A DNA stretch of 64,000 bases. Origin: Taxawa tesnikishii (nom. ined.) (lineage: Eukaryota; Ascomycota; Dothideomycetes; Dothideales). The position numbers were made by a program, and so were the translations under genes. This document shows positions 22 to 61,098 of this stretch, piece by piece; the stretch's first letter is position 1, and each line of letters begins with the position of its first letter. The stretch is from assembly GCA_030247885.1 (NCBI GenBank), contig JAPDRO010000008.1, positions 248,001 through 312,000 of the forward strand, in the 5' to 3' direction. The notes under the pieces were generated by a model that worked only from the letters and a program-made list of their open reading frames with translations, was not told the origin of the DNA and ran no database searches.

Positions 22-1008
22 TCATTTCCTGCTGAAGAACATGTCGTTGCTATTCTTCCAAGCAGCCTCCGCAATTTGCTCGACAGAGACGCCCTTTAGA
101 CCGGCAACGACCAACGCGACACGGCTGATCAAACAGCTCTCGTTTCGCTCCTTGACCATATAACCCATCTCAAACTTGTCCTTCTTCTTCCTGGGGGCAT
201 TGGAGGCGCATTCTTCAGGTAATTCTTCGCGACGTCGGAATTAGCGGGGATTTCGCCCCATGGCGCGTCTGTTTCCAGCTGCAGCCTGTCCAAGGGAATT
301 GCCTTTACCATCTCGAGGGACTCTTCGTCCTTGAAGCTAAACCCGTTGACGCTGACGTCGAAGCCCATCTCAATCAAGGCCTCCATCTGGAACTTTGGCC
401 CAACGAAAGAATGAACAAGGCCCCGGTGTGGCAATTTTGCAAGATACGGCTTGATGACTGTAACGAAATCGTCGAACGCAGCCCGACAATGAAGGAATAG
501 AGGCAGATCGAGCCTGTGCTCTACGAAAAGATTCAGTTGTGCCTTGAATGCGGAGATCTGAGCTTCCTTGGAAGCCTTTGCAAGATGGTCGTAGTCAAGG
601 CCGAGTTCTCCGAACGCCGCTAGCGGAGTCTGATCCTCCTTCAACAAATCTTGAACGACCCTTGCCATTTTCGCCAAGTAGTCCGGGTCTTCATTCGGTT
701 CTAACGCATGATATGGATGAACTCCAACAGTCACGAAGCATTGTTCTGGATGCGACCGGGCAAGGTCAAGGTTGAAGTCGACGTCGTGTAGGGACATGCC
801 AGTCAGCATTATCCTCGTGACACCGCTAACCATGGCTCGGTCAAGTACAGCAGGAAAGTCGGGCTCATGTTGTTGTTTCCCACGGTAGATACCGGCAAAT
901 TCTCTTGCTGTCGCAGTGACGGCGACCTTGTAGACAAGTTAGCAGATGTGAAACCATTTTCATCTTGGATCGAAGGGTGCCCACATCAGCGAAGAGCAAC
1001 TTTTCCAT
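22..1008 (-). CDS. TatD-family metal-dependent DNase, frame-disrupted
   Basis: TatD-like hydrolases are TIM-barrel metal-dependent 3'-5' DNases linked to DNA repair and apoptotic DNA breakdown. The body shows the family order: FAGIYRGKQ near the N-terminus, MLTGMS, VGVHPYHA (metal-binding His), FGELGLDY, FLHCR, and LETDAPWG near the C-terminus. A tiny first exon (1008-985, starting MEKLLFAD) joins 926 across a 58-nt intron with a TGCTAAC branch site; its GTGGGC donor is unusual, so exon 1 is less sure. The frame breaks in a G5 run at about 193-197. After it, the other frame reads on as KKKDKFEMGYMV and ends FFSRK-stop at 22. Adding one base gives 309 residues, normal for the family. Without it the protein ends at 129 with an unrelated tail. 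The family call is firm. Confidence 0.82.
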
Positions 1009-1526
1009 TCTTAGACAAGGTTGAGCAGCTTGCGAGTCTTGTTCAATTAAACACGCTCTTGTTGATGTTAGAAGACAATTAATCGATAGTTGTTGCGGTG
1101 CTTGCAGGCTGGCGGCTCATGTAACTAATTTGGTCACCGATGTTTAGCCGTAGCGGCCCTCAAGAAAGTGGTGCACCATATATGTACTCTCCTGAACTTT
1201 CATTTCGCTCTTCTCTACGGACAAGGCCTTACAAGGTAGCCTGGAACACAGTTGTGACTTACGCACAGCTAGCATGAGGAGTCCAGCAATGCGGTATGTG
1301 GTGTTAAGAGCTAACGTGTCAGGTTGGCTTCCTGGCGGGCCTTTGCAATGAGAGCCACTGCCTGCGCAGTCAAAGAAACAGTGTTCTCGTGTCCGATCAC
1401 ATGATTCTGATGTCGGTCACCTGATTGTATGAATGCGTTGTCTAGGCTAGACTAGAATGCAGACCAACCTTCAGCACACCCTTAGAGAGCACCAGAGCGT
1501 CAACGCTTACATCGTCTTCCCCTCTT
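1009..1526. other. intergenic: TatD upstream / GH16 downstream
   Basis: About 520 bp between the start of the TatD gene and the stop of the GH16 gene. It should hold the TatD promoter and the GH16 3' UTR. I see no further coding or RNA signal. Confidence 0.5.
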
Positions 1527-5038: not shown

Positions 5039-5184
5039 ATACGGCATTTCAGTGATAGATGGCGCTTGCGGACATTGCTTGTATGAAGCGGCGATCTTAT
5101 GACGTTGAGATCTTCTCGTGGCTTCCCCGATATATTCAGTCTAATCTGATTACGAGGTAGCAGTATCCCTCGTATTTGATTCAT

Positions 5185-9208: not shown

Positions 9209-10540
<1,332 letters not shown>

Positions 10541-11247: not shown

Positions 11248-14200
11248 TCACAGCGTCTCCCATCCGCCCGTGTTTATATCGCCTTCCAACCGCCTAGAGA
11301 TAACACTGGGCACTCCATGCGCGAGCCACACGTCGCGCAGGAGCTTGTCGTACCGCTTCTGGTTGAGGAAAAGCTGGTGGTGTCTCCTCAGCGTTGGGTC
11401 CACCTCGCCGTGCTTGTCGAGGTACGGTGCATGCGCCCAGCTGCCATGGTTGTTATGCATAAACAGCACCATGCATTTTCGAACGTTGATGAAGATGCCT
11501 ACATTGCCTCCGCACCTGTCACTTTGATTAGTGCTCTGCTGAAACTTTGACACTGTGGGAAGGAAGGAGGGCAGGATGGGCGAAGACAATGTGAGATTAC
11601 GACGGCTAGACTTACCTCTTCTGGTGTTGGTAGCACCCGCCCTTGTTCCGATCCTTGAGGCAGCAAGTAGCCTGGCTGCAGAAGATCTCGCCGCAGAAAA
11701 GACACACGGCAGCGTCTGTGACTTCCTTGCCCGTCGTTGGGCATCTGGCCTGGAATGCCGCTTCAGTCAAGGCGTCGTAGTTCTTTGGCAATCCGACCAG
11801 CTCGAAGATAGCCGGGTGGCTGAGAGTCACCGTCTTGCTGTGTCCACCAAACCCGTCAGGGCTGCCTGCTTCCTTTACCCATCTCTCACCCAGCGTGCGG
11901 AGTACTGCTCCGGTTGGTGTATCCGCAACAAAATCACGGAAGATCTGGTTAAGCGACGGAAGACGGAGCAAGACAGACAAGCGGTCCAGCTCTGAGGTCT
12001 CGGGATCCACTTGCGCGGCCATGGAGAAGTCGACGCCAAAGCGAACGTGCATAAGAATGAACGCTTTCCTCAAGAAAGTCAAAGCGTACTTCTCCAAGAA
12101 AGTAAGGATTGGACGCATGAACTCTTCAGTTCGGACCTGCAGCATCCTCTCAAAACGAAGGTCTGCGGCGCCGTTAGCTTCCGCGTTCCATTTGCATACC
12201 AAAGCGTCCGTCAGAGCGAATGCGGGTTCATGTTCTCTGTCGCTCAGTGGAATTTCCCTCTCCAGACGAGCACCTGTCTCGGTGTTGTAGTAGCCAGTGC
12301 CCTCTAGCGTCGAGTCAACCATGAGAACCTTCAATATCTCGGCGAGATAGCATATTCTCAAGAGTTCATGCGGATTCTCAGAGCGGAACGAGAGGCTTGC
12401 AAAAGCACAAACAGATCTTCCTCAAAGAGCGATCTTTGAATACCCAGCGCTCTTGATCGCATGGCGTCCTCTTCGTCTGTGTACGGGATCCCCCAAAGCA
12501 AGTCTTCCTTCTTTCGCCAGCTGAGGCTGTGCGGCGTCGAAGCACGGAGTCCGCTGTTCTCTGGATTGCGGACGTGGGTCACCGCCGCGTATGAAACCGC
12601 TGTCTCGGCCAGTATTCGGAGGTGTGTGAGCGTTTGGTCAGGTATAACGTTCAGAAGTGTGCCAGCACCACCCGCTGCGCTCATGCTGCCTACTCCGCGA
12701 TAGGCGATCTCGATGGCGGAAATCGACACTCCAACACTGTCGTACATAGCTTCGACGCAGGCTTGATCTGCAGATATTGTCGTATTGTTGTAATAACGCC
12801 CGCTGGTTATGCCGTTCTTCGCGAGGCTTTCTTTAATACGATGGTAAGCTCGAAGAAGGTCCGCGTGAGGAGCATAGGATTGTGTCCCATGAGCGGTGTC
12901 GGCGAGATGAGTAGGCTCCCTTGGTTCATCGGTCCGACGAAGGAACGCGGGGAGATGCGCTGAGGCCCAAGACGACTCTCGGGATATAGAGGATGGACTG
13001 GAAATTGAAGGCGAGGGGTTGCTCGGGACATCAGCAACGATAGTAGCCAGAGACCGGAACACCGTCTTCGTGATGTATTCTCGGTCGCCACTGAGCAGCG
13101 CGTCTTGATCGGGTGGCGTACGTTCGTTGGCCTTCTGCTGAATCCAAGTATCAAAGTTTGTGTCCGAGGTTAGTACTCCGGGAAACATTCCTCTTTGCCT
13201 TTCCAAATGACTGGCAGGAAGACGTTTCCGAGAGCTTTGCACAATGGGCACAAAAACTCCTTGTGCTCCATCCTTTCGGGATGATTTCTGGCGATCTGAT
13301 GCGCGTGTCGTCTTTGGGTGGCCGCCAGGTATGCTTCAAAACAACTGAAATGCATAATGTGCCCACAGCCCGTAGTGACCGGCCCTTCATGGGGGTCCTG
13401 TTGAGGAAATCCCTTCGAAAGCCCTTGACGTTCTTTTCCTACAACACTGCCGTCTCCCAGAGTCTTCTCGACGGTGTACTTGTTTTTGCAGCTACTCCAA
13501 AGGGTCGGATACCGTCGGCACTACGGTCAAGCGAAGATGGAGTGTTGTAGACCTCGGCTACAAAGTCTTCGTCGTTCCTCGGGGTTTGCCTGATGATCCT
13601 GCTTTGTGTGATGAAGGCAAATGTTCCATAGAGTCTGTCGTCATCGGTTTCTTCTTGACACAGCATACACGATCCAGATGGATACTGCCACGTCTTCCGG
13701 GTGATGGCTTCAGCCGCCCCTGTACCATCTTCCTGCTCATTTGCTTCCTCGTCGTCTAGGTCCCAATCGAGACCCTGATTTGCCATGAAAGAGGTCTGTT
13801 GTTGTTTGAACTGTGCCATGACGCGCGCCTGCCGTTCCAACGCCTGTTTCTTCTTACGCTCCCGATCTTCAGCTGACACTGGCGCAGGTGACTGTGTCTC
13901 GTCTCTGGACATTGTAAGTCCCATTCGCTCTCTTGCTTTTTGCAAGACGTCCGGCTGTTTCTGCTCCATGCGCTTCATGATAAGCGTGACCTTCTTTTCG
14001 CAAGCCGCAAACTGCTCCGTCTTGAGAATCTCGTCAAGTAGAGAGAAGGTGGAGGCTACGGAGCCATCATGCTTGATGGACTGCCGGCCAGTTGCGAGCG
14101 ATATAAAGGTTGACCTTCCAACAGCCAGAGCGCCAGGGTCTTCCTGAACAGCGACAAGTGCCAGGTGAAGCACCACCTGGAGGAACGTCTCCAATCTGGT

Positions 14201-17200
14201 AGCAGGAACTTTGCCTTGGCTATCTCTCACGCTCTCTAATGCGAAGTTGAGCGCAGCGTAGATGGTGAGATCGAACAGGCTTGTTCTTGTGAACCCAGCC
14301 AAGTCCTCAAACAACCCAAACTTGATGAGAGGTAAACGCGGCTGGAACACCACGTCCGTTTCAGCGATGCCTGTTTTCTTAGCAATGTATGCCTTGTATA
14401 TGTTCTCTGCTTCTTCGCGCTGATTTCGGTTGTAGTAAGCATAGTATGGATCAATCATCTCAATGTACTCGGGCTTGAGCTCAAATGTACCGGAGTCCGA
14501 TAATCCTTCGGGTGCTCGGAAGGTGGTCATTCCTTCCAGTACTTCATCGAATTCTTCGGCATCGCCAACCCGATCGGTGAGGCGCGCTTCAATGTCGGAA
14601 AACGAGAGAGGTTTGAAGCAAAGAACATGGGCAATCTCCCTCTGTAATGACCTGATATGCTGCTCAGGGTCATGGCTCGCTGGTAACAGAATTGTCCTCT
14701 CACCGAGGATCACAATCAGCATGTGAAAGAAATCCTCCATGACGTCCATTCGCTGGTCTTGGTCGTAACCATCAGGCACAGCATAGCTCCCTCCAATGAA
14801 CGACTGCATGTCGTATCTGTCGATCATTTGAGCGAGGAACTTGCTGTTCAATGGTTCTTTTGGCGAATGGCCGAGGAGCTTGCTACGCTGTGGGTCCTCT
14901 GGAGATTTGCACAATACCATGCCAGCTTGCAGCATGAAAATATCACGCTGATATGCTATATCACGCTGTGAAGTACCCCGATATGTGAGCATCTGATGTC
15001 GGAGGGTTATACCGTTCCGCACCCACATTCCAGCTCGCATCTGGGAGAGCCAAACACAGACGCGCAGAGGGTGGTCAAACAATAGTGAGAGAAGCTCATC
15101 AGATGTTGGACGAGGGACGACAGTTGGATACTGAGATCCGGTTGAGACTTCTTTGAGATCGGCAGCTTCAAAGTGCAATAGCTGCCGGATGTCGTCGACG
15201 TGCATGTTGCGACCGGCTTCGAGCAGCCAGGACAACAAGTAGTGCAACGGATGATGGAAACTCATAGGCTCCTTCAGTACAGCAAATTCGGAAACTCTTT
15301 CAGGATGTCCATAAAATTTGTGTACGTCATGGAATGTGGCATCTTTCTTGATTTCGGCAGCAATGAATCGTTTGCGGTCCACACCGAACGAATTGTTCAA
15401 TGTCACCAGCGCAGTGGTCCGAATAGCACGGCAGGTTGGCTCAAGTTCTTCTCCAGGAGCCAAGCAGAAGGCTTCTCCCACCTGCCGACAAAGCTTGTTG
15501 ATCTCTTTGATTATCATAGATGCACTAATCCAGGCGTCTGCCTCGTATTCGACATGCTCGCCAACGGCTCGTACGTTGGGACATATTCCCTGATGTAGTT
15601 TGACCAGATCCAAGAACTGCAGCAGATAGCGGGATTCGTTGCGGACCTTCTCTTGCACGAAGCCAGACTGAAACATGTACTTCGTGTCGTGGAAGAAGTG
15701 AAACATGCGCCTGTTTGTGACTGCACCAGCATCAAAGGCCAATGTAGCCTTCGGGTTCACACTTGAGGAAATCCAACTTGTCGGGTCGTGAGGAAGGTGT
15801 ACAGGATGGCCAGGAGATTAGTAAGAAAATTGCCTCTTTCCACCACCTCCGCAGTTATCGAAGGTGTTGTAAGCATCTGCACAGAGAGGTTGATGATCGA
15901 GTGATCAGGTTCACGGTCAGCAATGAGGTACAGCTGAGAGAGCAATGTATAAAGGCCCGCAAATCTCAGTCCCAGAATCCTCTTGAAGTGAGGCACAGTC
16001 ACCACTGTGCTGATGTACAAATGGCGCAGATTGATCCGTAGCGTCTTCCACAAGCGTAGGTCGAACAATATCAAGTAATCTAACCGAAGGCGCTTCCAGA
16101 GATCTTCGGCAGGTGGAACAGACTTCCGAGACATGAACTCTTCAGGCGCATCAAGCCAGTGCCGCAACGGCCAGGACTGGCGCGGGGTTCTGGTGCTAGT
16201 TTTGGGTGTCTTGGGAACATTTGAGAACGGTACTGGTTGCTGAGCAGAAGAACCCTCGCCATCATCAGAGTCGTTAGGGCTCAGGACTCTTCGAGCTGTT
16301 GGTAAGTTGTTATGATCTGCGCCTGTCCGGCGAACCGCAGGTGGGGGAGGAGGCGGAGGGTATCCTGCCATAGTTGCTTCGAGTGCTTCGGTCGTATCCT
16401 CCGACTCATCCAACATGTCCATGTCAGTCTCGATGTTGCGTGCGATTCTTTCCAGCTCACGAGCCTCTCCGGCATCAACGTCCATCGTGTCGTCGTCCAT
16501 TTGCATCTCCTCGATTTCCTCGTCCATGATAATCTCCTCATCGTCCTCGTCGTCATCGCCCTCGTCGCCCTCATCTAGCTCCAGTTCGACTCGTACGACG
16601 TTACCTGGACCAAAGGGACGGAGGAGCTGTTGATATTCTTGTCGTTGCTTGACGTTCTCTTCGTATTCATGGTCATCAATACCAGCTTTGCCAATTCCGC
16701 TGTTGATACCCTCGCTCCCCTTCTGCCACGGCTTCAGGAGTTCTTCACAAATAGTATCGCGTAGTATATGAGGGTCAGGCCCTACGCTGCATCCAGAAAT
16801 GTCCGATATCCAGTCAATGATGGTACCGCACATCTGCTCTCTGAACGTGTCCCTCGCCGAGCGTATGGTGACCGTGACTTTGAGCTCCTCAATAACTTTG
16901 GTCATGCGGAGCAACTCATTCAGGTTGGTGGAAGTATGCACCACACTGCGCCCAATATCGTTTACTTCCATAGCTTTTCTCAACCCGAACCTCTTCGACT
17001 GCGCGCATGCCTTGGCCACCTGGTTCTGCACGTCCTCCACTGTATGCTTCTCATCGTTCCATAGAATGAGCGCGTATTCCTCATCAGCATCCAGGTGTTC
17101 TTGTCCCTCATAACGGTTGGGAATTAGCCTGGCTTTAAGTTCGTCGAATCTGACGGAAGCTTCGGTCTTTGGTAGACGGAGTTGCTCTGGCGAGCAGGAG

Positions 17201-17781
17201 AAGACGTCGACCATATAGTCCAACACTCTGCCGATCGTCATCCGAATGACCTCTACAATCTCTTCAGGAAGTGCTGGGGCCTTGCCCGCATTTTTGTCCT
17301 CAACAGCGCCGTTCGTGCTGTGTATCGAGCAACGAACCGGCCGGATCCATGCCTCGTCATCGGCGCAATCGCAACAACCGCTGTTTCCAGGCGACACACT
17401 AATGAAGACCGTGTGACCGTCATGGTCCGAGGACTCGAAGCATCGGGCGCACAGGACGCAGGTATCGTCCGCGGCACAAGTCTTGCATCGGTAGGTAGAT
17501 TCTCCATCCCTAAAGATGTGCCCGCAAGGATGTCCTCTTGCCGCCTCAGTGTACTCGGCCCCATCCACAGCACCCTGCGCTTGTCGCAGACTCCATGGTT
17601 CTGTGGGGTCTTCTGGGATTCCTTGTGGGAAAAAGAGGCGCAAGTTGGCCTCGTCGTGGCCGGCAAGTGACCTGAAAAGGTATCTTCTTAGAACTTCATC
17701 CGCCTCTTCTGTAAATCGGTTCTCGTATTCGTGCGGTAGATCCCTCAGGAAAGCGCTAAGATTTCGTTCTGCTTGCGACAT
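11248..17781 (-). CDS. ubr1: E3 ubiquitin ligase UBR1 (N-recognin), frame-disrupted
   Basis: N-end-rule ubiquitin ligase that binds proteins with basic or bulky N-terminal residues and ubiquitinates them with an E2 of the Rad6 type. Domains in order: UBR box (from HPCGHIFRDG through CCDCADDEAW), ClpS-like type 2 site (YALILWNDEKHTVEDV), an acidic stretch of about 70 residues, a long helical body (NPKATLAFDAG), RING-H2 (CMLCQEE ... GCGHIMHFSCFEAYL ... CPLCK), and a UBR-leader C-terminal zinc domain ending GDINTGGWETL. One intron is clear, 11615-11516 (GTAAGT..CAG). The frame changes at about 15770, 13485, 13183 and 12386, each equivalent to one missing base; with four added bases the length is 2,145 residues, usual for fungal UBR1. 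Start MSQAERNL at 17781 is the only plausible one. Confidence 0.92.
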
Positions 17782-18427
17782 AGGGTGTACTACCGGATGC
17801 GCGTTGTGTCGGACTCGAAGCTTTCTGTTGTCGGTTGTGTGCGTATGTGAGGTTTATGAAAGCATGGGGAAGATGTTCTGGTGTTAGGGTAGAAGGTGGG
17901 ATTCAGTATCGTGGCAACAATCACATCATGCGCTCGCTTCACGTCTCAAAGTGGGATAGGGAAAGCACATGTACATGACGTCGCGAAGCTGCCAAGACCT
18001 GGTATATGTGAACATGCTGGAGGGGACATTCAAAGGCTCATTGACATGACGGCAAGGACCACGAAATCACGGCAAGTTAGGACTAGATGTCGCTGTTTTT
18101 GCTGTTGCTGCAACTTGTCGAGTGGTTGCAGAGGGCTTTTCCGGAGCGGACGGCGAACGGATCGTCCCTTACATTCAGAGAGTCATGATTCTTTTGGCAA
18201 GGCTAGAGCGAGGGCGTGACGGAAGAAAATCGTTGCAACAGATAGAGCCGTACAGAAAGCGATTAGCAGGTCGAAGGCACCAGAGACACAATACAGTCCC
18301 CTCCCTGGGGCGGGTTGGCTCGACGGTTTTCTTGCTTGCGAAACGCTCAGTTATGATACACCATGGTACAGCTTCCGTCTATAGGTTCAGTCGCCCAATT
18401 AATTGTTCCTTTCAGGCGAATCTTTCC
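17782..18427. other. intergenic: UBR1 upstream region
   Basis: About 645 bp between the UBR1 start and the QCR9 stop. Presumed UBR1 promoter plus QCR9 3' UTR. No gene recognised. Confidence 0.4.
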
Positions 18428-18854: not shown

Positions 18855-19140
18855 TGTGACTTGTAGGAGGGCCTTCACCACGGAAGAGGAGAGCGACGGT
18901 GTGAGTGGAGAGCAATTGGCGGTAGAGATAGAGGTGGTGTTGCTCGTCTGGAAGTCAACGAGAGCTTTCCGGCGCGGTAAGCGGGAATGGTTGGCTATTG
19001 GCTGGAAGGGGCTTTCCGCTGCCAAGGATTCATGCCCTGCTCCGCGGTTCGGTCTCACCCATTATTACTTGCGCTTTGGCAGGGAACATCAACTGTGAGA
19101 CATATCAAGGCGCGCAGTTCGCCGGTCCAGGACCCCCGAC
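18855..19140. promoter_or_regulatory. shared divergent promoter region, QCR9 / PYM
   Basis: 286 bp separate the two start codons, so both core promoters must lie here. No named site recognised. Confidence 0.45.
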
Positions 19141-19751
19141 ATGGCGCCCTCAGCGACAGGTGGGGCCGAAAAGGCCTCCAAATCTGGCATCACCACATCT
19201 ACAAATGGAGAGCGAATAATTGCAGCATCCACCAGAGCAGATGGCTCCGTGAGAAAGGAAATCCGTGTTCGTCCCGGTTACCGGCCGCCGGAAGATGTTG
19301 AGGTCTACAAGAGTCGTACCGCCGAGGCTTGGAGGACCCGTGGCGGCGGAGGAGTGCCAGGAGCAGAACCTGTGGGCAAAAGTACAACAACTGCCGCTGC
19401 GAATAAGAATGCAAAGCGGAGGGAAGCCCGCAAGAAGGCTGCTGCTTCGAAGGACGGAGGTGATGAGGATGCAACCACAACAAGTGCAAGAACCACGGCC
19501 CAGGCAGATACAGAAGAAGCCTTCAAAGAAGAAATAGTGGATCCTGAGGCGGAGAAAGCGAAGGAGGCTAAAAACTGAGCAAAAAGTTACGCCAGGCGAG
19601 GGAGCTTAAGGACAAGAAGGACAAGGGCGATTCATTGCTTCCTGAGCAGTTTGAGAAGGTCATCAAGATCAACGAGCTCATTCGACAGCTGGCCAATCTT
19701 GGGTTCGATGCAAACGGAGAGAAGACCGATACGACTAGCGAGAAGCCCTGA
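19141..19751 (+). CDS. pym1: PYM/WIBG (partner of Y14-Mago), frame-disrupted
   Basis: PYM binds the Mago-Y14 core of the exon junction complex on ribosomes and helps disassemble it. The N-terminal Mago-binding segment is clear: SGITTSTNGERIIAASTR, then DGSVRKEIRVRPGY and RPPEDVEVYKSR. A Lys/Ala-rich middle follows. The C-terminal helix region (KKLRQARELKDKKDKG, EQFEKVIKINELIRQL) is in the next frame. The break is at an A5 run at 19570-19574; one more A joins the two parts into 203 residues without any other change. As written, the first frame ends at 19578. Start MAPSATGG is the first ATG and fits the family. Cytoplasmic. Confidence 0.87.
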
Positions 19752-40977: not shown

Positions 40978-42440
40978 TTACAGCCTGATCCACCCCTTCT
41001 CCACCGCCCTCAAGTACTCATCTTCGCTGACTATCTCCCAGTTGCCCTCGTCCTTGCCGTACAGTCCAGTGGTACCGTACGGACCTTTGGACGAACTCGT
41101 CTTAGTCGCAGGCCACGAGCCGCCCGATGAGATCTGAGGCAGGGCGAAGTCTCCATGGACGACGCAGTCGCGGGGGTCGAAGATGCAGTCTGCGAAGAAG
41201 AGCTCGATGGCCAGCTGCCCTCGCACCCGCTGCCGATGTGCGATGAGGTTGCGGGCCTGATTCAGGAGTCTGCGCAGATTGTCGAGCTTGCGCTGCTTCG
41301 CGTCGGCGCCCTTGGCGGTGTGGGAGTGGGAATGGTCGCAGAGATGCAGCGCGCGCACCTGACAATCGCCCTGCCAGCGGACTTCGTCGTTGCTGAAGAG
41401 ATCAATGCACATGGATGGCACACTGATGGAGAGGTCTTTGAGCCTGGGACAGCCGGTCAGAATCTCGCAGATGTGCTCGCCGGACTGCAGGGTTCCTGGG
41501 TTTGCGTGGAAGAAGCCGTTTTCGGATCTCGGGGCGTGCTCGAGGACACGGATGGTGGATTGCGAGGCTTTGACGATAGCCATGACGCCCTCGATGGACA
41601 CGGTCGAGAGGCAGGAGATATGGAATTCTTCGAGGTTGGTCGCTGTACGGGCGATGATGGCGAGGTCTTCGTCGTTGATGGGTTTGAAAGTTGTGTTGCC
41701 GAAGATCTTGAAGCGCTTGAGGTGCTGGAAGTTGACGCGGGGTCTTGCAGTGCTTGAAGGTCGATGCGGTTCGCTGGATCTTTCATCTCAGAGTCCTTGA
41801 GGCACAAAGCCTGCAGTTCGAGTGATGTCACGGGCATGTCGTTGGCGTCTGCTATGCCCAGAAGGTGCGTCCAGTCCTCTGCGCTACCACGCCGCAGAAG
41901 AGTCCATGGTATGCTGATCGAAGTCAAGTTGCGGCAGCTTCTCAACGTGGAGAAGATGAGGCGGTCTGTCTCGGCGACGTAGAACCCGTTGAACCACAGA
42001 CGCCTGATATTCTCTGTGATCTTTGGGTGGTTCTTGAAAAGCGTTGCAGTCTGTGTCAGAAAGCCAAAGGGCGGACGGTAGGTGGCCATGTCGGACAGTC
42101 TGTCGACCAACTCGTAGAGATGGTACATCTGCCGTCGTCCGGAAAGCTCCACCCATCCTTCAGCGCCGCGCCACCTTCGCAGGTGAAGGTCCTGGAGAGC
42201 ATACTTCAGAGCCCACTCGTGCCATCGCGAGCAGACCTGGCGGATAGATGCGGTAGAATCCCAGCGGAGGGTGTCTGGACTAACTGGTCCGCGCACGTAG
42301 CGGGTGAGCTTCGCTTCCTGCAACGGCAACGGGGCCTTGCTCAGACCGTAGGTGTATGTGACGCACTCTGTACTTTCGAGCAGGGCAGCTTGCTCGAGGA
42401 TGTTGGTCAGGATTTCTTGAGGGAGGCTATTGAGGTGCAT
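40978..42440 (-). CDS. F-box-like protein with LRR-type body, frame-disrupted
   Basis: N-terminal MHLNSLPQEILTNILEQAA is a typical F-box start, which would dock to Skp1 in an SCF ubiquitin ligase. After SIRQVCSRWHEWALKYALQDLHLRRW come irregular Leu-rich segments (IRRLWFNGFYV, SCRNLTSISIPW, VTSLELQALCL, FKIFGNTTFKPI, LEEFHISCLSTV, CPRLKDLSISVPS) like those of fungal F-box/LRR proteins. The frame changes at a G4 run at 41739-41742 (CCCC on the coding strand); one added base gives 487 residues. The substrate is unknown. A CCTGTG repeat lies in its 5' UTR. Confidence 0.72.
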
Positions 42441-42450
42441 TGCTGTGATG

Positions 42451-42480
42451 CCTGTGCCTGTGCCTGTGCCTGTACCTGTG
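42451..42480. repeat. (CCTGTG)n repeat in 5' UTR
   Basis: Five near-perfect 6-bp units 10-40 bp upstream of the F-box-type start codon. Confidence 0.9.
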
Positions 42481-43346
42481 CTATTGAGGTGAAGTAGCAG
42501 TGAGTCTTTGTGATGTCGGTGGTGTACGGGGGAGAGAGAGAGGGGAGAGAGAGAGGGGGGAGCAAAAGGTTCGACAAAGGCGAGGCGGGGAGGTTGTGTG
42601 CTGAGGCAGACGACACTTATACTTCAGACCCGACTCGCCTATGTCGGATGGCGCAGGACTCGCAACCGCGACTGTTCGAGCGGTCTATGAGGAAAAAATG
42701 CGTGGCACATGGCCAAGGGACAGCCGGCGGCATCCCTGTCGTACTTCTGTCGTGTTGCGGGCGTTGCGAAAGGGTTTGCGCATCACTCGTTACCCACAAC
42801 TGCAGAACGTTGGTCTCAGCTACGGTCACGGTTGCATCTCTTACATCACGGAAACCTCTGCAGTGCTGGGCAACGTCGGCCTACCTCTACCACGCGCGAC
42901 CAAAAGAGGTTTCCCGGGGTAATAGAATCACTTTGTGGGTGAGAAGTCTTGTATTTATGGGGTAATAGTAACCAAAGCGTGCGGAGAGCGACGGTCACGA
43001 CACGATCCGCCAAGCAAAGCCGCCATGAACGCCGATGCCGTTGTTCCTTGCAAATGCTTGCATGCGAGACCGCGTGACTCGTCCGGTGTTTTTCGATGAC
43101 ACCAGAAATCCGCTGATTCGCGCCATACACCGTGATGGTTTGGAGTTGCGCTGCGATGCGAAACTGCCCTCTCAAAAGGCTCGCTTTGACTCCAACACCG
43201 CTTTGTCCAACCACGCCTGCCCGGACGCCACTTACCAATGGAAACTCCAGAGTTACCATCGCGCCGGAGACAGACTACAGAGCATCGAGCGGGGAGACAG
43301 GTAAACGTTGACATGGTTCAATGGCAGGTACACCCCGTTGTTACGT

Positions 43347-43420: not shown

Positions 43421-43513
43421 GCCACGTCCAATCCGTCGTAATAGCACTGTTGCGCCGGAACTCCGCGCTCACAGTGACAACCAATGCATGCAGACCAAAC
43501 ACTCGTCAGCTCC

Positions 43514-44876: not shown

Positions 44877-46126
44877 ATGGCAAGCTTCTTCGACATCAAA
44901 GCACGGAAAGCCGCCGCCGCCGCAGCTGCTGGTGCCGGCTCATCGAAAACAACCGCACCCAAGGAGACCAACCGACTACAGCCATGGGTTGAGAAATAGT
45001 AAGATTGAATATCTTCTACCCTACCGCTTTAGCATATCCTCGCCTCTAACACACTCAACCAGCCGTCCTAAGTCCCTCGACGATGTGACCTCCCAAGACC
45101 ACACCATCACCGTCCTCCGCCGCACCCTCCAATCCGCCAACCTCCCCCACATGCTCTTCTACGGACCGCCAGGCACGGGCAAAACCTCCACCGTTCTCGC
45201 ACTCGCCAAACAGCTCTACGGGCCCGATCTCTTCCGCTCGCGCGTGCTCGAACTCAACGCCTCCGACGAGCGCGGCATCTCCATCGTCCGCGAAAAAGTC
45301 AAGGATTTCGCACGCATGCAACTCTCCAACCCACCTGCGGGCCCGGCGGGCGAGGAGTACAGGAAAAGTATCCGTGTCCGCCGTACAAGATCATCATTCT
45401 GGATGAGGCGGACAGCATGACGCAGGATGCGCAGAGCGCGTTGAGAAGGACCATGGAGACGTACTCGAAGATCACGCGGTTCTGCTTGATCTGTAATTAC
45501 GTGACGCGGATCATCGATCCGTTGGCGAGCAGGTGCAGCAAGTTTCGGTTCAAGAGCCTGGGGGACGATAACGCGAAGAAGCGACTTGGGGATATTGCGG
45601 CATTGGAGGGGTGAAGATGGAGGACGGAGTTATTGAGATGTTGATCAAGTGCGCAGACGGGGACCTCAGAAAAGCGATCACGTTCCTGCAGAGCGCTGCG
45701 AGGCTCGTGGGCGCTCAGCCAGCAGGGGGTTCAAGGGATGAAGATGCCATGGACATGGACATGGACAGCGCCCCGTCATCTGGCAAGCTAATCACCGTCC
45801 GGAGCATCGAGGAGATCGCGGGCGTGATACCCGACTCCACTATCGACCGATTGCTGCAGGCCATGCAGCCGAGATCCAAGGGCTCGGTGTACGACTCCGT
45901 AGCGGGCGTGGTGACGGGTTTGATCGCAGAGGGCTGGAGCGCGACGCAAGTGGTCACGCAACTCTACGATAAAATTGCCATGAACGACGCTATCCCGGAT
46001 CGGCAGAAGAACAAGATCGTCATGTCATTCTCAGAAGCGGATAAGCGGCTGGTGGACGGTGCGGACGAACATCTGGCTATTCTGGACCTGAGCTTGCAGA
46101 TTGCAGCGGCTCTTGCTGGGAGTTGA
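44877..46126 (+). CDS. rfc2: replication factor C subunit 2, frame-disrupted
   Basis: AAA+ small subunit of the clamp loader that places PCNA on DNA at primer ends. Exon 1 (44877-44998) encodes [13 protein letters not shown] and LQPWVEK; an intron (GTAAGA..CAG, 44999-45062) restores YRPKSLDDV. Then Walker [19 protein letters not shown], Walker [11 protein letters not shown], the SRC arginine finger in [12 protein letters not shown], and the C-terminal collar domain. Frame changes at A4 (45364-45367) and G4 (45608-45611) each equal one missing base: the first splits EEYRK from [10 protein letters not shown], the second LEG from VKMEDG. Adding both gives 395 residues. An Asp-Met-rich insert lies before the collar. 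Essential in fungi, so true double inactivation is improbable. Confidence 0.95.
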
Positions 46127-46712: not shown

Positions 46713-47588
46713 TCACGCGGAGAAGTTGACCTTGGCGAGCGCCTGGTAGAAGGCCTTACCCTGCTCGGTGGCCAGGAGGAGCTCCTTCTCGGTTGGCTGG
46801 CGGGAACCGTCACCACCCTGTAAATGCTGGCGTGAGTACGATTGCGTTACTTTGTCGGGGAAGAGGGGAGCGAGAGGGAGGGCTTACAGCGAAGGTACCA
46901 GCACCCCATGGGGAGCCACCGCGGACCTCAGTCAGGTCGGCAAGGGTGCCGAAGACGGTCTTGTAGCCGAGAGGGACGTAGATGAAGCCGTGGTGGGCGA
47001 GGGTGCTCATGGCGGCAATGGCAGTCGACTCCTGGCCACCACCAAGGGTACCGGTGGAAACAAAGAGACCGGCGTACTTGCCCCAGAAGGCACCAGTCTG
47101 CCACTGGGCACCAGTGTGGTCCCAGAAAGCCTTGAACTGCGCCGGGTAGTTACCGTATCTGGTGGGGATGCCGAAGAGGAATCCGTCGTACTGCTCAAGG
47201 GTCTTGGGCTCGTGGAGGACTGGGATGTTGCTCTTTGGGGAGCGTGCATCTTGGAGAGGACGTCCTCCGGGAGAGTCTCGGGGACCCTGGGCGAGGTCAG
47301 TCTTGGTCCGATAGATGGTGGAGGGAAGCGAGCGAGGTGGAGGCTTACTGGTAGAGATCGCAGGTACCGCCGGCGGCCTGATGCCCTCGGCCTCGGCCTC
47401 GGCGAGCTTCTGTACGTGACCGTACATGGAGTACTAGCAACGTCCAGCGTCAGTACAAGTGAATGTATGGTTGCAGTCAACTCAATGGTAGCGGGAAGCT
47501 GATGGTCTGAGCTGAAGCTCTAGACAAACATTGTTGCAGACTCGCGCGGGACTCGACTTACGAAGACGATGGCGATCTTTGGTGCCAT
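46713..47588 (-). CDS. Alt a 7-like NAD(P)H:quinone oxidoreductase (WrbA/Pst2 family), frame-disrupted
   Basis: FMN flavodoxin-fold protein of the WrbA/YCP4 group that reduces quinones by two electrons; the Alternaria homologue is allergen Alt a 7. Four exons: 47588-47562 (MAPKIAIVF), 47433-47349 (YSMYGHVQKLAEAE), 47286-46888 and 46817-46713. Typical pieces are MHAPQ, GFLFGIPTRYGN, FWDHTGAQW, GKYAGLFVSTGTLGGGQEST, GFIYVPLGYK, GGSPWGAGTFA and the C-terminal QGKAFYQALAKV. Exon 2 is off-frame near 47376 and exon 3 near 47234; each equals one missing base, and both added give 205 residues, normal. Dimeric or tetrameric, cytosolic or eisosome-associated in yeast. Confidence 0.9.
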
Positions 47589-51897: not shown

Positions 51898-52878
51898 TCA
51901 CTGATTCTTCCTCGCCGCAGCTAGATGCCACTCAAACACCTTCCTGAAAACACCCTTTCCACCCGTCTCTATCACGTCGCCGTGGCAGGGTACAATCCTG
52001 TCAAAATCCCACTTGTCGATCTTCGCGCAGCTCCGGTTGAAGCTGCCACGATTCGAAGCGCTCAACGCATACCAAATAAACCTCTTTTGCCAGATCGCGT
52101 CACCGCGTGTATTGTTTATCTTGACCATCAGCTTCGTCAAGAACCCGGACTGCGGGCTCTCGTTCGTCTTGCTCATCTGCTCGTTCGCCGGCAGGTTGAA
52201 CAGGAAATCCGCCTCGATGAGCGTCCGCGACGGTTTGTGGCAGAATACAATCTCCTTGTTGGCGTGCGCGTCGACGTACTCATAGTCGAATTCGCGGTCG
52301 AAGTCGGCGTCAATGCGTGTGCTTTCCTTCTCTTTGGCCCTGAAGAGGTATGCGAATGGAAGTGGGTTTCCGTTCTTTTCGCGCTTGGGAGCGAGGGTTT
52401 CTGGGCCGATGAGCTTGGCGTTGGGATACTCTTTGTGCCAGGGGTCGAGCGAGAGATGGTGTTCTTGGTCCAGTGCCGTGATGTATTTGACTTCTCCCAT
52501 GTCGCGGACTACATTGCGATTGTTAGTGTGGTGAACAGGATTACGGCGGGGTTGAGAGGTAGTACCAAGATTGCGGACGTCGTCGGTGAGAGAGACGGGG
52601 AGAAGACGGCTAATGTGCCATTCTGGAGACGGACTGAACTGGTTGTTAGTGTGTCGAAAAGGATCACGGTAGAGGTGAAATTTGGTACCTATGGTGCCAC
52701 GACCGCCAATCTTGATGCGCCCGAATCGCAAGAAAGGTAGAGATTGGGTTGCAAGATCTGGTGTGATTCTGCGAATTACCATCACCTGTTGCTAGCGTCA
52801 GTAGTCTTGCCAATACATCCCAACTCATGTCTCCTCACGTACCTTGTCGGGGTTTGGTGGGATGAGCTTCTGCGACAT
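51898..52878 (-). CDS. metallo-beta-lactamase-fold protein (DUF4336-like), frame-disrupted
   Basis: Four exons: a 36-nt first exon (from 52878, MSQKLIPPNPDK), then VMVIRRITPDLATQSLPFLRFG up to GGRGT, a short third exon that reads VRLQNGTLAVFSP, and the long last exon from about 52505 (GEVKYITALDQEHHLSLDPW). The region EVKYI-x-A-x-D-x-EHH is where metal ligands sit in the fold, and DRIVPCHGDVIETGGK is the late His motif. One base is missing near 52592 in the TCTCTC tract, where SPSL should become S-L-T-D-D-V. Many ascomycetes carry such proteins with unknown substrate. The exon 3 borders were set from family pattern and could be off by a few bases. Confidence 0.75.
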
Positions 52879-53967
52879 GTTATTGTGTGTTCCTCAAGCT
52901 GTCTTTGCAGTTCTGGAGAGTCCTGTAGGGCGTTGAACGGTGGCTAGGAGAAATCAGAATGAGCAGTGGATAGGAGTCGCGTGCAATGGATGTGTATATG
53001 GGTCCATTGCGAGTCGATGTAATAGTTTATATATCTAGAAGACGTCATCAGAAGATGGAAGCTGCAGGGACCGATGGACCCCGCGACGATCCGCCTACGG
53101 CCGGAATGCGTTAGATCAGCGAGGCTCTCAAGCAATATTTGCTTACTGATCGTGAATCTAATCGACGAATATCAAATAGCCGTCAGCAGTAACCCGGGGA
53201 GGACAACGCTCAGCTTCCTGTGCGTATATGCATATGGATTCAAAAGCATGACTCCGGACGCGAGATGCGATCGTACGAGTGTTTGGAACGCCACGCATGC
53301 GCATTGGCGTTTGTGACGCCTGGCGATGCTTATGTGTATGTGTCCGCACGTATGCCCTGATTCCGCGCCCGATTCGCTGTTCGTGTACAGACGTGATTCT
53401 CCCTCCGATGGCGGAGTACGCAATGGATCCCCGGCGCTCGATCCGTGCTCGGGGGTCTCCTGACGACTTCCTGAGAATTTGAAACATTTACCTGGCCAGT
53501 GTATCGCAATCGTCTTATCGACAGAGAGAAGCGTGATAACCAGGTTGACGAAGCTGTACTGTATGTTTAAGTGAACGTTCTGCCTGAGAGGCGCGAAGCG
53601 AAAAAGGCGTCACATTATTTGCTGGCTTTGCAACGCGCAGGCACGGATCAAATCGCAGGGAGTTCGCCAACGTCGCTGTGTCCCTCGACGTAGACGGCAC
53701 CTTCACACTATCCGACTTTGCAGGCGTATATTGAATGGAGTGAGCACTGAAGTCCGGCACGAGGTGAAGATTGTCTGTATATATATGCTCGGCACCACAT
53801 CCGAAGTTTGGGGTTTCGCGTGCCAAGACTCGTCACTATTTGCTAGTCTGATATTCTTTTCAGTTATCCACAGCTACTGCACGCGACACAACCATCCCAT
53901 CTTTGCCCACAGTCTTTGTGCCGCTTGCCACTTCCTTGATGGTTTCTGCGGGTCAGAGCTTATTGGA
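52879..53967. promoter_or_regulatory. divergent intergenic region, lactamase-fold gene / RRN3
   Basis: About 1.09 kb between divergent starts. Short open frames lack conserved features. Presumed promoters of both genes. Confidence 0.4.
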
Positions 53968-56129
53968 ATGGTTTCTCTCGCCGCTCCCATGGCCGTAGTT
54001 CCGCCACCCTCAGCCCAACGCTCACAGAATACCCGGAAGCGAGACGCCTCTCACCTGTCCTCCCCTCCATCCACGACACCCTGTCTTCCAGTCAGGTCAA
54101 GCGACTGAAGGTGGCCTTTGATGACAACGTCGATGTACGCATCATGGACGACTGGAACGCCAAACCGCTGGAGCTGGTGAGGGAGGAGGTGCGGGCCGCC
54201 ATAGAGGGCCACCTCAGACCTGGAGACGAAAAGGATGATGCTGCCTACGAACAACTACGACTCATGTTCCTGAGCGCAGGAGTGAACTCGGATGCGCAAC
54301 GGCCTGATGTGCAAAAAGCTGCATATACGGACGAGAAGCCTAGCACAAAGCTGCTGAAGCAGTACATCTCCGCCCTCACACAGCGTGTCAGTGATCTGCG
54401 AAACTGCGGGGCACTCATGTCGACGACCCTGGATACCAACTGGGTAGGAAGGGAAGAGGGTTTCGTAATGACATATATGCGCTACCTGGGAGCACTAGGT
54501 AGTGCTGTACCTGGCGTCCTCCGGCCCATGCTCGACAAGATCGTGCACAACTTCGTCACCTTGCCATCCTCATATGGAAGACTACCTGGAGAACCAAGAG
54601 TGGGAAAACAGCAAATGCTTTCAAGGGTGCACAACACAATCAAATACCTACAACGCCTCATCCCTTCGGCCAGCACTACACTAGCAGAGGCCCTGCGACG
54701 CGAGTTTCCAAATCACCACACCGTGAACAAGCGAACGTATATCGGATATGTGAAGAACATGCTCCTCGTTACAGAGTATGCACCGGAGCTCAAAGGAGAA
54801 ATACTCACATTGATTACCGAGAGGCTGGTGAAGCTGGACGTGGAGGTGCAGGAGGAGATCGATGACCTCGAGGAGGAAGACGAAGAAATGGTAGTGAAGG
54901 GTGTGAACAGAGCCGAAGGAGGCAACAAGGATCAGGACGATTCCGACATGTCCGACGAGAGCGGTGCTGAATCCGACGCGTCCAGTGATCTCGAAGCCAC
55001 AGCAGAGGAAAAGCGCCTACGAGCACTGCGCGAAACCGTTGACAAGATGGATGCTGTTCTCGACCTGCTCTTCGCTCACTATACCGACGCTTATCTCGAC
55101 AACCGTCCTGGACAGGCGAACGACAGCTTCCACAATCTCTTGAGCCAGTTCGAAAACTTCGTGCTTCCCACCTACCGGTCGCGGCACACCCAATTCCTCG
55201 TCTTCCACTTCTCTCAGGTGTCCCAATACAACGTGGATCTATTCCTTGACGCTCTCCTCCGCATCGCGTTCCGCCGCACCGCTCACTCGCACAGCTCGCT
55301 CTCCGCCGTGGCGTACTTGTCCAGCTACATCGCTCGCGGCGCTCACGTGCCAAAGCGTACCGTGCGCGAGATCTTTCAAACACTGGGACGGCAACTCACG
55401 ACCTATCGTCTTACTTACGAGCCAACATGCCGCGGGCCCGACCTTGCGCGCTACAGCCTTTTCTACGCGGTCGTGCAGGCCATGCTTTACATCTACTGCT
55501 TCCGCTGGCGCGATTTGATCCTGCTGGAACAGGGCCAGGACGAAGAGTCACTTGATGACTACGACGTCTTTGCATCCGGCGAACCCGCCTGGATCCCTGG
55601 CATCAAGGAGACACTATATCAGAGCATCTACAGCCGGCTTAACCCGCTCAAGGTCTGCGCTCCGCCAATCGTCCAGCAGTTCGCCGCCATTGCGCATCAC
55701 CTCCGCTTCATGTATGTCTTCCCGCTGCTGGAAACGAACAAGCGGCTTCGGCTATCGAGTTATCGGTCGCTGGGTCCGGCCGTGGGCGCGGGCGGTGTGC
55801 GTGAGCTGGGAGTTGGGAGGAGGGAGGGAGCGTTGGCGGGGAAGAAGGGCGAAGCGCATCACCAGCTTGACGCCTTCTTCCCATTTGACCCTTATCAACT
55901 GCCCATGAGCAAGCGCTGGCTTGAGGGCGATTATGTGGTCTGGAAGGGCGTACCGGGAATGAAGAAAGAAGACGACGATACCGACGTGAGTAGTGACGAG
56001 AGTGAGGACGATGATGAGCTCGAGATGGATGGGGATGTTGATGAGATGGGTGATGCGGACTCGTTGAGCAGTCAGGTGATGGATGCGCGGGAGGAACTGC
56101 ACTTGGGCGCAATACTTGGCAGGGTTTGA
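53968..56129 (+). CDS. rrn3: RNA polymerase I-specific initiation factor RRN3, frame-disrupted
   Basis: Rrn3/TIF-IA binds RNA polymerase I and makes it able to start rRNA transcription; nucleolar. The body is a HEAT-like helical repeat protein: LKQYISALTQRVSDLR, ALRREFPNHHTVNKRTYIGY, LLVTEYAPELKGEIL, LITERLVKLDVEVQEEI, an acidic insert (DLEEEDEEM, DSDMSDESG), MDAVLDLLFAHYTDAYL, FLDALLRIAFRR, AVAYLSSYIARGAHV and the C-terminal DAFFPFDPYQLPMSKRW. An acidic tail ends the protein. The start at 53968 (MVSLAAPMAV) joins the body near 54045 after one added base, giving IHDTLSSSQVKRLKVAFDDN in frame and 720 residues. As written the clean frame starts inside at 54111. Confidence 0.93.
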
Positions 56130-57605: not shown

Positions 57606-60600
57606 ATGGACGACTCTTCAACCTTTGCGCTAACGACCCTGCAGCCCTTCCATCGTTACGGCCAGCGAGAGCGACCCGTGCCTCAGAGGTCTCGTTCAAC
57701 CACAAAATTACGGAGTAGTAGCTTATCAGAATGCAGATCTCTACCGGCGTCTTCACCTCCTCCAAACTCTCCTCCGCCAACCCCCACCTCCTCGCGCCCT
57801 CTCGGCCGCAGGACCATCTCCACCACCCATAGTAAGTGCTCCGCTCTCTGGCTCGCGCCTGCCGTTTTGGGAATGTTCCTTGCTCTGCTCTGCCCAGTCC
57901 CGCTTGCAGCCTCAACGGCTGGACTTCGGGTCCGCCGGTTAACTCAAGGGTCGGAACCTCTCTTCTACTGCAAAGCTGACCACCTAGATTCTTCTCACAC
58001 CGCAAAGATGGACACAGGCCATCTCAGTGTTTCCGCCCCCGCCGGCACAAAACATAAGCAGGTCCAAGATGCCAAGGACATGCAAAGACTCATCACGGAC
58101 CGTTGCAACAAGAACGGCACCTCTGTACCACCCTACGAGTTCCTCGAGCTAATTGGAAAGGGCTCATTCGGTCGCGTCTACAAATGGTAAGTTGCGTTAC
58201 GCTTCGCCACTCCGCTGCTCTACCCATGCCGCCTCACACCAAATCCCACTGACTGTCGCAGTCGAAAAAGGAACGTTACGCCGGACGAGTTTGTTGCTAT
58301 CAAAATCCTGGATGTCGACGCATTGGACGCTTCGGTCGACCACATGGAAAAGGACGAAACGATCAAGGATTTCCTCAAAGAAGTGAACACGCTCCTTTTA
58401 CTCAGAGAGAGCAAAGCCAAGAACATCAACCCTATTCAGGAAGCGTTTGATCTGCATTCGCAACTATGGATCGTCAGCGAATACTGTCCTGGCGGTAGTG
58501 TCCATACTTTGATGAAGGCTTCGCCAAGTCCCGGTCTGGAAGAGCAATATATCATTCCCATTGCCCGAGAACTGGCTGTAGCAATGAAGTACGTCCACGA
58601 CGTGGATATCATACACCGCGACATCAAATGCGGCAACGTCCTGATCTCCGAGGAGGGTCAACTCCAACTCTGCGATTTTGGCATAGCTGCAACCGTGCAA
58701 ACAGAGACCAACGAAGGCAAGAGAACCACTATCATCGGTACACCAAACTGGATGGCCCCGGAGATGATCAATATTCTTGGATCACATGACGAACAGATCC
58801 GATACGGCAAGGAAGTCGATCTGTGGGCATACGGATGCACCATCTATGAAATGGCCACCGGCTTTCCTCCTAACCACACGTTCCATCCGTCCATGCTTCG
58901 TAAAGTGCTGAAGACCGCTCCCAGACTGGAAGGCGGAACTTACTCCGAAGAGTTGCGCGAGTTCGTCGCATTCTGCCTCCAGGAAAGACCGCAAGACCGA
59001 CCAAACGCGGACCAAATATTGAATCATTCATATATCGCCAACACCGAGCAGGAATACCCGACAAAGAAAACCCTGGATCTTCTGAATCGCTATCATTTGT
59101 GGGAACGACAGGGTGGCCAGCGAGCATCTCTTTTATGCCAACCGGCGCCGACGCTCCCCAGACAGGAGACCAGTCGAATGATACCGACGAGTGGAACTTC
59201 AGTACTTCTGACAACTTCAACGAGGCTTTCGACAACCGCATGAGTCGGATAGGCATAGGTATATCAACTACCGACTTTGCTGATCAAGACAACCGGAACT
59301 CATCCGGGTTTGGGCAGTTTGGAGCTACCATGGCAGCTCAGCGCGGCGAACGATCTCTGCAGCGCATCTTCGACCAAAACGCTGAGTCTTACGACTACAA
59401 TACTTCAGTGGAGGAGCAGCCGCTGTCAGATCTCCCACTGCGCAACCTCTCGAGCGGTCGCGCAGCCAATCGTGAGACTCTCATTGACCTGGACATGGAT
59501 TTTGCCGGCTTGGAATACCAACCCACATTCGACTTCAACGATGTAGCCACGATCAGAGCTTCTCGCGCACTGCGTAACTCGATACAACCGGATGTTGAAG
59601 ACAACGAATACTATGACGCCCAAGGTCAGGATACTCGGCGTGCGACAAGGGATTGGAAATTCCCATCGATAGCCCCTCCTCAAGATAACGCGAACCGGAA
59701 AACCCAGGATTGGAGCTTCGCCATGGCCCAAACACTTACTACTGCAGAAGAGAATGCGAATCGGAAAACGCTCGACTGGAGTTTTACCGACGCGCAATCA
59801 CTCACAGCTCCTGCGCAAGGCAATCCCAACCGACGCACGCAGGACTGGAGTTTTGAGACAGCGCAACCGATGGAGCCTGCAGATGACGACCTCGAATTCA
59901 CATTTTCGTCCCCTGCACAAGACGAAGCAGAGCTGTCCTTCCCAACTGCAAGAAATACATCGGAACTCGCTCCTGGCTTCCGTCCGGCGCTCAAACACAC
60001 GGCGACGGAGCCGATTGGCCAGTTCAACGACTTTTACATCCCGTCGCACAGCTTGCAGTGACTGGCGATGAGCCGTCCGTGCGGGAGTCTAAGCCAATCA
60101 TCGACCTTGATCTTATGCTTGGTGCCGGTGCCAGTTTCGAACCCACCTTCGACACGGAAGACCCAGCAGGTATACCGCGGCCGTCGACGGCAGCAAGCAT
60201 AGCTACTTCGGCAAGATCAGATGTCACGGGCAACCCTTTCTTCCTGGAGGATGAAGGAGAACAGCAAGACAAGGATCGCAATCGCTATTCCCATCACCGC
60301 CAATACAAGTCGGAACCAGGACGCATTAGTCCTGCTGACCCTGATCGTCAGTCGTTTCACTCCCATGCAGCAAGTCATGGATCGTACACCAGCCACGGAT
60401 CTTACGCGGATCTAGGGTCGTACCAGCACACAACACGAGCCAGAGGGAGCTCGCTTTCGTCCACAGCCTCGTCGCTTGGAGAGCCTGATTTTGAAACGCG
60501 CGATTACAAACGACAGATGGGAGCACACACTCGTGGTCAGCTGATGAAAGGACTTCACGGCGCCTACGATCCCGGCAACTTTGCCCGCTTCGCCGGGTCA

Positions 60601-61098
60601 AACGCATACAATGACAGCGACGCCGACGCCCTGCTCGCGGCAAACGGCCTCCACGTTCCAGCCATCGACGAGCCCGGATACTCGCTCATGCAGCAGAATG
60701 GCCTGCACGCCCTGCACGGCTTCAGCGATACCGACGACGCAGGCACCGGCGACGACATCCAAGTCCCGCGCACGCGGGCGCGCGCCGCTACTGAAGCAAG
60801 CAGCAGCACGCTCTCTGGATACGATTCTGGCGAGAGAGAACGCGCGCTCGCGGCCGTGCCAGACCCGTCCGAGACTGGATTCCCAACCCTCCACCCGCCC
60901 AAGGCGGACGCCCTGATCGAAGGCGCGGATTCGGAGGCTGTGTTTATGGAGGTCGATCGCATGTTGGCGGACCTGGAGGTCGGGCTCGCGTATGCGGCGG
61001 CGGCGCTGCATCGGCGGGCGAGGGAGTTCGCTGCGGATGAGGAGACGGGGAGCGAAAAGCCGGTGCAGGACGAGGATGCCGGCGAGCACGGCGTCTGA
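57606..61098 (+). CDS. Ste20-family (GCK/PAK-type) protein kinase with repeat tail, frame-disrupted
   Basis: Serine/threonine kinase of the Ste20 group. The start MDDSSTFAL (57606) gives a Pro/Ser-rich N-tail; introns lie at 57832-57987 and 58187-58261. The kinase core has ELIGKGSFGRVYKC (P-loop), VAIKILD (Lys), HRDIKCGNVL (catalytic loop), LCDFGIAA (DFG), GTPNWMAPEM (APE) and WAYGCTIYEMATG. It is closest to fungal PAKA/severin-type kinases. The tail, in two further frames, holds about four copies of a unit with NRKTxDWSF and later Ser/Gly-rich repeats, ending in a helical LEVGLAYAAAALHRRAREFA. Frame changes near 59120 and 60058 each equal one missing base; about 1,087 residues once added. 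Polarity or septation roles are known for relatives, not shown here. Confidence 0.88.

What the first reader, a model, noticed from the sequence alone, without database searches (positions are those of the whole stretch)
22..61098. Systematic single-base frame losses across most large genes
Seen directly: 26 places where a conserved protein continues in a different frame; 24 of them act as one missing base. Sites (approx.): 195, 2075, 12386, 13183, 13485, 15770, 19572, 24515, 25008, 27212, 28615, 32158, 36514, 36906, 38005, 41741, 45365, 45610, 47234, 47376, 52592, 54045, 59120, 60058, plus 22327 and 48312 that go the other way or lose two. Many lie in runs of 3-5 identical bases. For UBR1, PYM, RFC2, RRN3, the 36128 gene, TatD, GH16 and the flavodoxin, adding the predicted number of bases makes the CDS length an exact multiple of three. 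Established: long-read assemblies under-call homopolymers. Inference: this window comes from such an assembly and the genes are intact in life. If it were biological, this fungus would have lost UBR1, RFC2 and RRN3, or would use frameshifting on a scale unknown in fungi.
Basis: partly seen in the sequence, partly recalled or inferred. Interest (0 to 1): 0.72.

Follow-up and report, generated by a model that had tools for sequence, protein, structure and literature searches.

The report
Long-read assembly errors breaking gene frames
Many genes in this fungal genome look broken because the assembly appears to have dropped single letters, mostly in short runs of one base; the genes are very probably whole in the living fungus, so this is an ordinary sequencing artefact.

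Summary
The one-base frame losses are in the sequence, but they are almost certainly an artefact. Eleven are "missing base" slips, all within 17 bases of listed sites; I read the twelfth as a short intron. Targeted scoring supports 5 more of the 26 sites, 5 are plausible only and 5 are unconfirmed. Introns cannot explain RFC2, which matches yeast Rfc2 in three frames with only 20 and 8 bases between the matched parts. Similar slips occur on at least six other contigs. The cause is visible inside the assembly: in two of four comparisons, copies of one mitochondrial sequence on contig C25 differ by 18 one-base indels, all in runs of 3-10, and no substitution. A second mitochondrial molecule was assembled twice, with atp6 broken in one copy and open in the other, and a tRNA-Met one base shorter in one copy. 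Mitochondrial cox3 lies in four frame pieces. The same defect is described for nanopore-only fungal assemblies (PMC7500977, passages). Raw reads were not available.

The parts
11615..17853 (-). UBR1 (N-recognin E3 ligase): one gene in five overlapping open frames, breaks near 15770, 13485, 13183, 12386
   Evidence: Pfam zf-UBR, ClpS, UBR1-like_wing and PRT6_C in successive frames; PRT6_C positions 14-133 end at 12400 and 136-386 begin at 12409, so the two frames overlap with no room for an intron. HMM slips at 12394 and 15774; 13183 and 13485 only by targeted scoring, where the lax test scored an intron slightly higher.
45058..46105 (+). RFC2 (replication factor C subunit 2): three frames, breaks near 45365 and 45610
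   Evidence: Yeast Rfc2 chain 7sgz_D residues 30-122, 125-205 and 209-351 in three frames; 20 and 8 bases lie between the matched parts. HMM slips at 45379 and 45611.
25..938 (-). TatD-type DNase, break near 195
   Evidence: Pfam TatD_DNase 12-211 in frame 1 and 215-252 in frame 2 (E = 0.007, below the family cut-off); slip favoured by 63 nats over no change and no consensus-type intron. Not an HMM slip, whose coding segment starts at 195.
19099..19748 (+). PYM (Mago-binding), break near 19572
   Evidence: Pfam Mago-bind in the first frame; no Pfam hit in the second, 59 aa; HMM slip at 19576.
24236..25565 (-). Mitochondrial carrier, breaks near 25008 and 24515
   Evidence: Mito_carr repeats in three successive frames; HMM slips at 25011 and 24507.
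36703..38372 (+).
   Evidence: HMM slip at 38009; searches do not support a missing base at 36514 or 36906.
40981..42623 (-). Protein without a Pfam match, break near 41741
   Evidence: HMM slip at 41738, overlapping open frames 40981-41787 and 41460-42623; no Pfam family at E 0.01.
58191..61095 (+). Protein kinase with long tail: three frames, breaks near 59120 and 60058
   Evidence: Pkinase in the first frame; HMM slips at 59116 and 60041 inside one coding segment 58278-61095.
53940..56126 (+). RRN3, break near 54045 just before the conserved part
   Evidence: RRN3 profile 5-557 in one frame from residue 77, so the RRN3 domain itself is open; slip 14.8 against none -18.6, extra 11.3.
27039..28744 (-). 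RRM protein; break near 28615 supported, near 27212 plausible
   Evidence: RRM_1; scoring, where a consensus-type intron competes at 27212.
46716..47433 (-). Flavodoxin-like FMN reductase: plausible losses at 47376 and 47234 plus short introns
   Evidence: FMN_red; three-frame reading by eye; HMM 'extra' at 46884 read as an intron; scoring not decisive.
51901..52791 (-). DUF4336 protein: plausible loss at 52592 plus a possible intron at 52509-52565
   Evidence: Pfam DUF4336; frames read by eye; scoring not decisive.

Best explanation
The window comes from a long-read assembly whose consensus drops single bases, mainly in homopolymers, all over the genome. In life the genes are very probably intact. 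Shown: the slips, their missing-base bias, their excess in runs, their presence on other contigs, and homopolymer-length disagreement between copies of the same mitochondrial sequences in this assembly. Inferred: that the same process made the nuclear slips, and that the platform was nanopore without short-read correction.
For: 11 missing-base slips found without the list, with 0 false slips on 60 kb of simulated coding sequence. RFC2 breaks leave 20 and 8 bases between parts matched to yeast Rfc2. Outside the window, 31 distinct slips in 54 nuclear loci: 15 have a consensus-type intron as competitor, 2 a poor one, 14 none (11 missing, 3 extra), on C1, C3, C4, C9, C20 and C30. 17 of 24 placed slips have a run of 4 or more in their 90% interval, 6.0 expected. 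Copies on C25: four comparisons, 12,107 columns, 24 indels (20 in runs of 5 or more) and 12 substitutions; two of the four have 18 indels and no substitution. C26 against C28: 15 isolated one-base indels, 14 in runs of 5 or more. atp6 is in two frames in C26 (profile 2-121, 117-217) and one frame in C28 (18-217). cox3 is in four pieces, profile 1-91, 72-114, 114-211, 211-258. tRNA-Met is 73 nt in C26 and 72 nt in C28. Precedent: PMC7500977, passages.
Against: No reads, so no single nuclear site is proven wrong. C26 and C28 also differ by 49 substitutions and 14 clustered or other indels in patches, one patch around the atp6 break at the end of C28, so not every difference is a homopolymer error. 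Two C25 comparisons have 4 and 8 substitutions. 5S rRNA genes show few indels: 44 of 47 are exactly 120 nt, which fits errors limited to longer runs but does not add support. Nuclear homopolymers show no sharp length cut-off. Slip density is higher in the window than elsewhere (p 0.03-0.07), though the other loci were picked by matches to intact families and some overlap. Mitochondrial run-length differences could in principle be heteroplasmy.
Confidence: 0.97

Rival explanations
1. The frame changes are short spliceosomal introns that the reader missed.
For: Short introns with CTAAC/CTGAC-like branch sites are common here: 15 of 31 distinct HMM slips outside the window have one as competitor. 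In the window, 46884 is one by eye, and introns also sit near 47376, 32158 and 52592. With any GT..AG allowed, an intron ties or wins at 9 of 26 sites.
Against: RFC2 has 20 and 8 bases between matched parts; PRT6_C in UBR1 continues across overlapping frames; of the 11 blind window slips, 10 have no consensus-type intron candidate and the one at 15770 scores 28 nats below the slip.
Confidence: 0.01
2. The fungus decodes its genes by very frequent programmed -1 frameshifting or by base-insertion RNA editing.
For: Frames continue with coding signal after the breaks; genes such as RFC2 and UBR1 are expected to be needed.
Against: No X-XXY-YYZ heptamer within 25 nt at 0 of 11 sites (0.32 expected by chance, so a weak test). 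Breaks also occur in mitochondrial genes, and assembled copies of one DNA sequence disagree at DNA level, which neither mechanism predicts.
Confidence: 0.005
3. The genes are real, recently decayed pseudogenes or frameshift alleles.
For: A minority of sites could be real variants; none is excluded one by one.
Against: Slips occur on seven contigs including the window's and in core genes; the frames after each slip still score as coding.
Confidence: 0.015

Closest known systems
Nanopore-only assemblies of Drechmeria coniospora (PMC7500977; passages seen)
   Same: Fungal long-read-only assembly; homopolymer indels alter reading frames of conserved genes; the paper says fewer than one-sixth of 305 conserved genes were predicted full length in the initial assemblies.
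   Different: There, long-read polishing added more insertions than deletions; here losses dominate (22 to 3). Short reads were available there and repaired the errors.
Gene-fragmenting long-read errors catalogued by Kastor (PMC12007338; passages seen)
   Same: Most indels are false deletions, tied to homopolymers of 2-8 with a peak after runs of 4-5, with a small share of non-run losses, as here.
   Different: The error profile seen there is for a bacterial genome; the paper's main text has no occurrence of 'fung'.

Membership tests
Long-read homopolymer indel artefact | Single-base indels, mostly losses | tested here: met
   11 of 12 window slips are missing-base; 22 to 3 with other loci
Long-read homopolymer indel artefact | Excess in homopolymers | tested here: met
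   17 of 24 with a run of 4 or more in the 90% interval, 6.0 expected
Long-read homopolymer indel artefact | Copies of the same sequence in one assembly disagree by run length | tested here: met
   24 indels, 20 in runs of 5 or more, 12 substitutions, four comparisons; C26 against C28
Long-read homopolymer indel artefact | Hits genes regardless of compartment or kind | tested here: met
   Mitochondrial cox3, nad1, atp6 and a tRNA-Met copy; but 44 of 47 5S genes are full length
Long-read homopolymer indel artefact | Accurate reads contradict the consensus | not testable with these tools
   No reads held
Spliceosomal intron | Donor, branch site and acceptor with room for 40 bases or more between coding parts | tested here: not met
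   RFC2 gaps of 20 and 8 bases; no consensus-type candidate at 10 of 11 blind window slips, a poor one at the other. Met at some other slips, e.g. 15 of 31 outside the window
Programmed -1 frameshifting | Slippery heptamer X-XXY-YYZ at the site | tested here: not met
   0 of 11 within 25 nt, 0.32 expected

The most novel reading that the evidence does not exclude
A fungus whose nuclear and mitochondrial genes both carry pervasive true one-base losses that are corrected during expression, by frameshifting or insertional editing.
Probability: 0.004. Interest if true: 0.95.

Novelty: not a real feature. Interest (0 to 1): 0.1.

Why it matters
It matters as a warning: gene calls from this assembly will show false gene loss, false short introns and false pseudogenes. 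At the window's blind rate (11 slips per 30.5 kb of model coding sequence) a long gene is likely to be broken at least once. The mitochondrial copies inside the assembly give a way to show the error without reads.

Tried and rejected
Rejected: introns as the general cause. The lax GT..AG test was not discriminating because GT and AG are everywhere; it tied or beat the slip at 9 of 26 sites. Rejected: slippery-site frameshifting (low power). Not informative: the nuclear homopolymer length distribution, which shows no sharp cut-off and for which I had no fungal control genome; 5S rRNA copies (44 of 47 at 120 nt; 30 copies compared, where the alignment was spoilt because the loci were not turned to one strand). 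Led nowhere: three literature searches, two of them for the source assembly by size and contig number, which did not identify it; organism left unnamed. A search for 5.8S rRNA gave no hit; two searches for the small-subunit rRNA failed at the server.

Rows dropped before counts: the two L084 slips repeat those of L078 (same place on C14) and were counted once; L004 2914 and L049 2491 were set aside as ambiguous; L075 3758 was counted among the 11 missing-base slips but left out of the run test as weak; window slip 46884 was left out of the bias test as an intron. Coding length outside the window (71.5 kb) counts some overlapping loci twice.

Full report
What was checked. The window is part of contig C33 (positions 248001-312000) of a 29.37 Mb assembly in 34 contigs; it looks fungal. 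I tested whether the listed frame changes are present, whether introns explain them, whether they are local, and what makes them.

Are they there? It found 12 slips in 30.5 kb of window coding sequence: 11 of the missing-base kind and one 'extra'. All 11 lie within 17 bases of listed sites. The 'extra' slip at 46884 is, by eye, a short intron. On 60 kb of simulated coding sequence the model made no false slip and it found 39 of 40 planted losses. Scoring each listed site directly supports five more: 195, 13183, 13485, 28615, 54045. Five are plausible (27212, 32158, 47234, 47376, 52592) and five are not confirmed (2075, 22327, 36514, 36906, 48312).

Are they introns? Not the best ones. The three open frames of RFC2 match yeast Rfc2 (7sgz_D) at residues 30-122, 125-205 and 209-351; the DNA between the matched parts is 20 and 8 bases. 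In UBR1 the PRT6_C profile runs 14-133 in one frame and 136-386 in the next, and the two stretches overlap on the DNA. Requiring a consensus-type donor and a branch site, 10 of the 11 blind missing-base slips have no intron candidate, and the one at 15770 scores 28 nats below the slip. A laxer test that accepts any GT..AG is not discriminating: an intron ties or wins at 9 of 26 sites. Introns do matter in this genome: of 31 distinct HMM slips outside the window, 15 have a consensus-type intron as competitor.

Are they local? No. Of those 31 slips outside the window, 14 have no such candidate (11 missing, 3 extra), on C1, C3, C4, C9, C20 and C30. Some of these may still be introns with unusual signals, as 46884 in the window is. 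Missing outnumbers extra 22 to 3 over window and elsewhere (p = 0.00016). The window's density is higher than elsewhere (p 0.03-0.07 depending on the count), but the other loci were chosen by matches to recognisable families, and some overlap.

Where do they fall? For 24 placed slips (14 window, 10 elsewhere) the 90% interval holds a run of 4 or more in 17, against 6.0 expected (0 of 5000 draws). Window alone: 11 of 14 against 3.3. Intervals are 6 to 115 bases wide, so single positions are not fixed.

What makes them? The assembly contradicts itself. Contig C25 (80 kb, mitochondrial) carries the same sequence several times in mirrored order. Four comparisons of copies: 2886 columns, 0 substitutions, 12 indels; 3074, 0 and 6; 3076, 4 and 5; 3071, 8 and 1. 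Of the 24 indels, 20 lie in runs of 5 or more. C26 and C28 are the same mitochondrial molecule assembled twice (99.4% over 15.4 kb). They differ by 15 isolated one-base indels, 14 in runs of 5 or more, but also by 49 substitutions and 14 other indels, mostly in patches, so a second source of error is at work too. The ATP synthase A profile is split between two frames in C26 and lies in one frame in C28; this site sits in one of the patches near the end of C28. cox3 in C26 falls into four successive frame pieces (profile 1-91, 72-114, 114-211, 211-258) and nad1 into two (2-182, 175-297). A tRNA-Met is 73 nt (62.6 bits) in C26 and 72 nt (57.2 bits) in C28. The missing base is not in a run; from the bases around it I place it in the T-loop, which is my reading and not a tool result.

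Reading. Nuclear coding genes, mitochondrial coding genes and a tRNA gene are all affected, and copies of one DNA sequence disagree at run lengths. That is the signature of an uncorrected long-read consensus, not of decoding, editing or gene decay. The passages I saw of PMC7500977 describe the same in nanopore-only fungal assemblies; those of PMC12007338 describe mostly false deletions tied to homopolymers, with a peak after runs of 4-5. I did not identify the source assembly, so the platform is inferred.

What weakens it. There are no reads; 5S rRNA genes are nearly all full length (44 of 47 at 120 nt); nuclear homopolymers show no sharp length cut-off; mitochondrial heteroplasmy is possible in principle. 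None of these offers a better account of the whole.

Noticed in passing
G000:C25 (L010-L014, L027-L031, L038) and C26/C28 (L069-L072): The assembly holds two different mitochondrial genomes: parts of C25 match C26 at about 74-91% in pieces (90.8% over 660 bases of small-subunit rRNA, output cut). This suggests two fungi, a mixed culture or a contaminant.
   Followed up: partly
G000:C25, mirror points near 14106 and 49575: C25 is built of mirrored copies of a unit of about 35.5 kb, judged from tRNA positions and mirrored loci: fold-back misassembly or a real inverted-unit mitochondrial DNA.
   Followed up: partly
C26 against C28, near 2576-2643, 7966-8604, 14829-14847, 15093-15186: Patches of clustered substitutions and indels between two copies of one mitochondrial molecule. 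Mis-polishing with reads of the other mitochondrial genome is a guess, not tested.
   Followed up: no
G000, all 34 contigs: No 5.8S rRNA match at E 0.001 (39 of 883 candidates scored), so the rDNA repeat may be missing from the assembly; small-subunit searches failed.
   Followed up: partly
G000, 47 5S rRNA matches: 5S rRNA genes are dispersed over many contigs; 44 of 47 are exactly 120 nt and 30 of them fall into 24 distinct sequences (strands not unified).
   Followed up: partly
window 8826-8919 (-) and 26060-26137 (+): An Rfam tRNA of 94 bases, probably with an intron, that ARAGORN does not report, and an ARAGORN tRNA-Gly that Rfam does not report at its gathering score.
   Followed up: no
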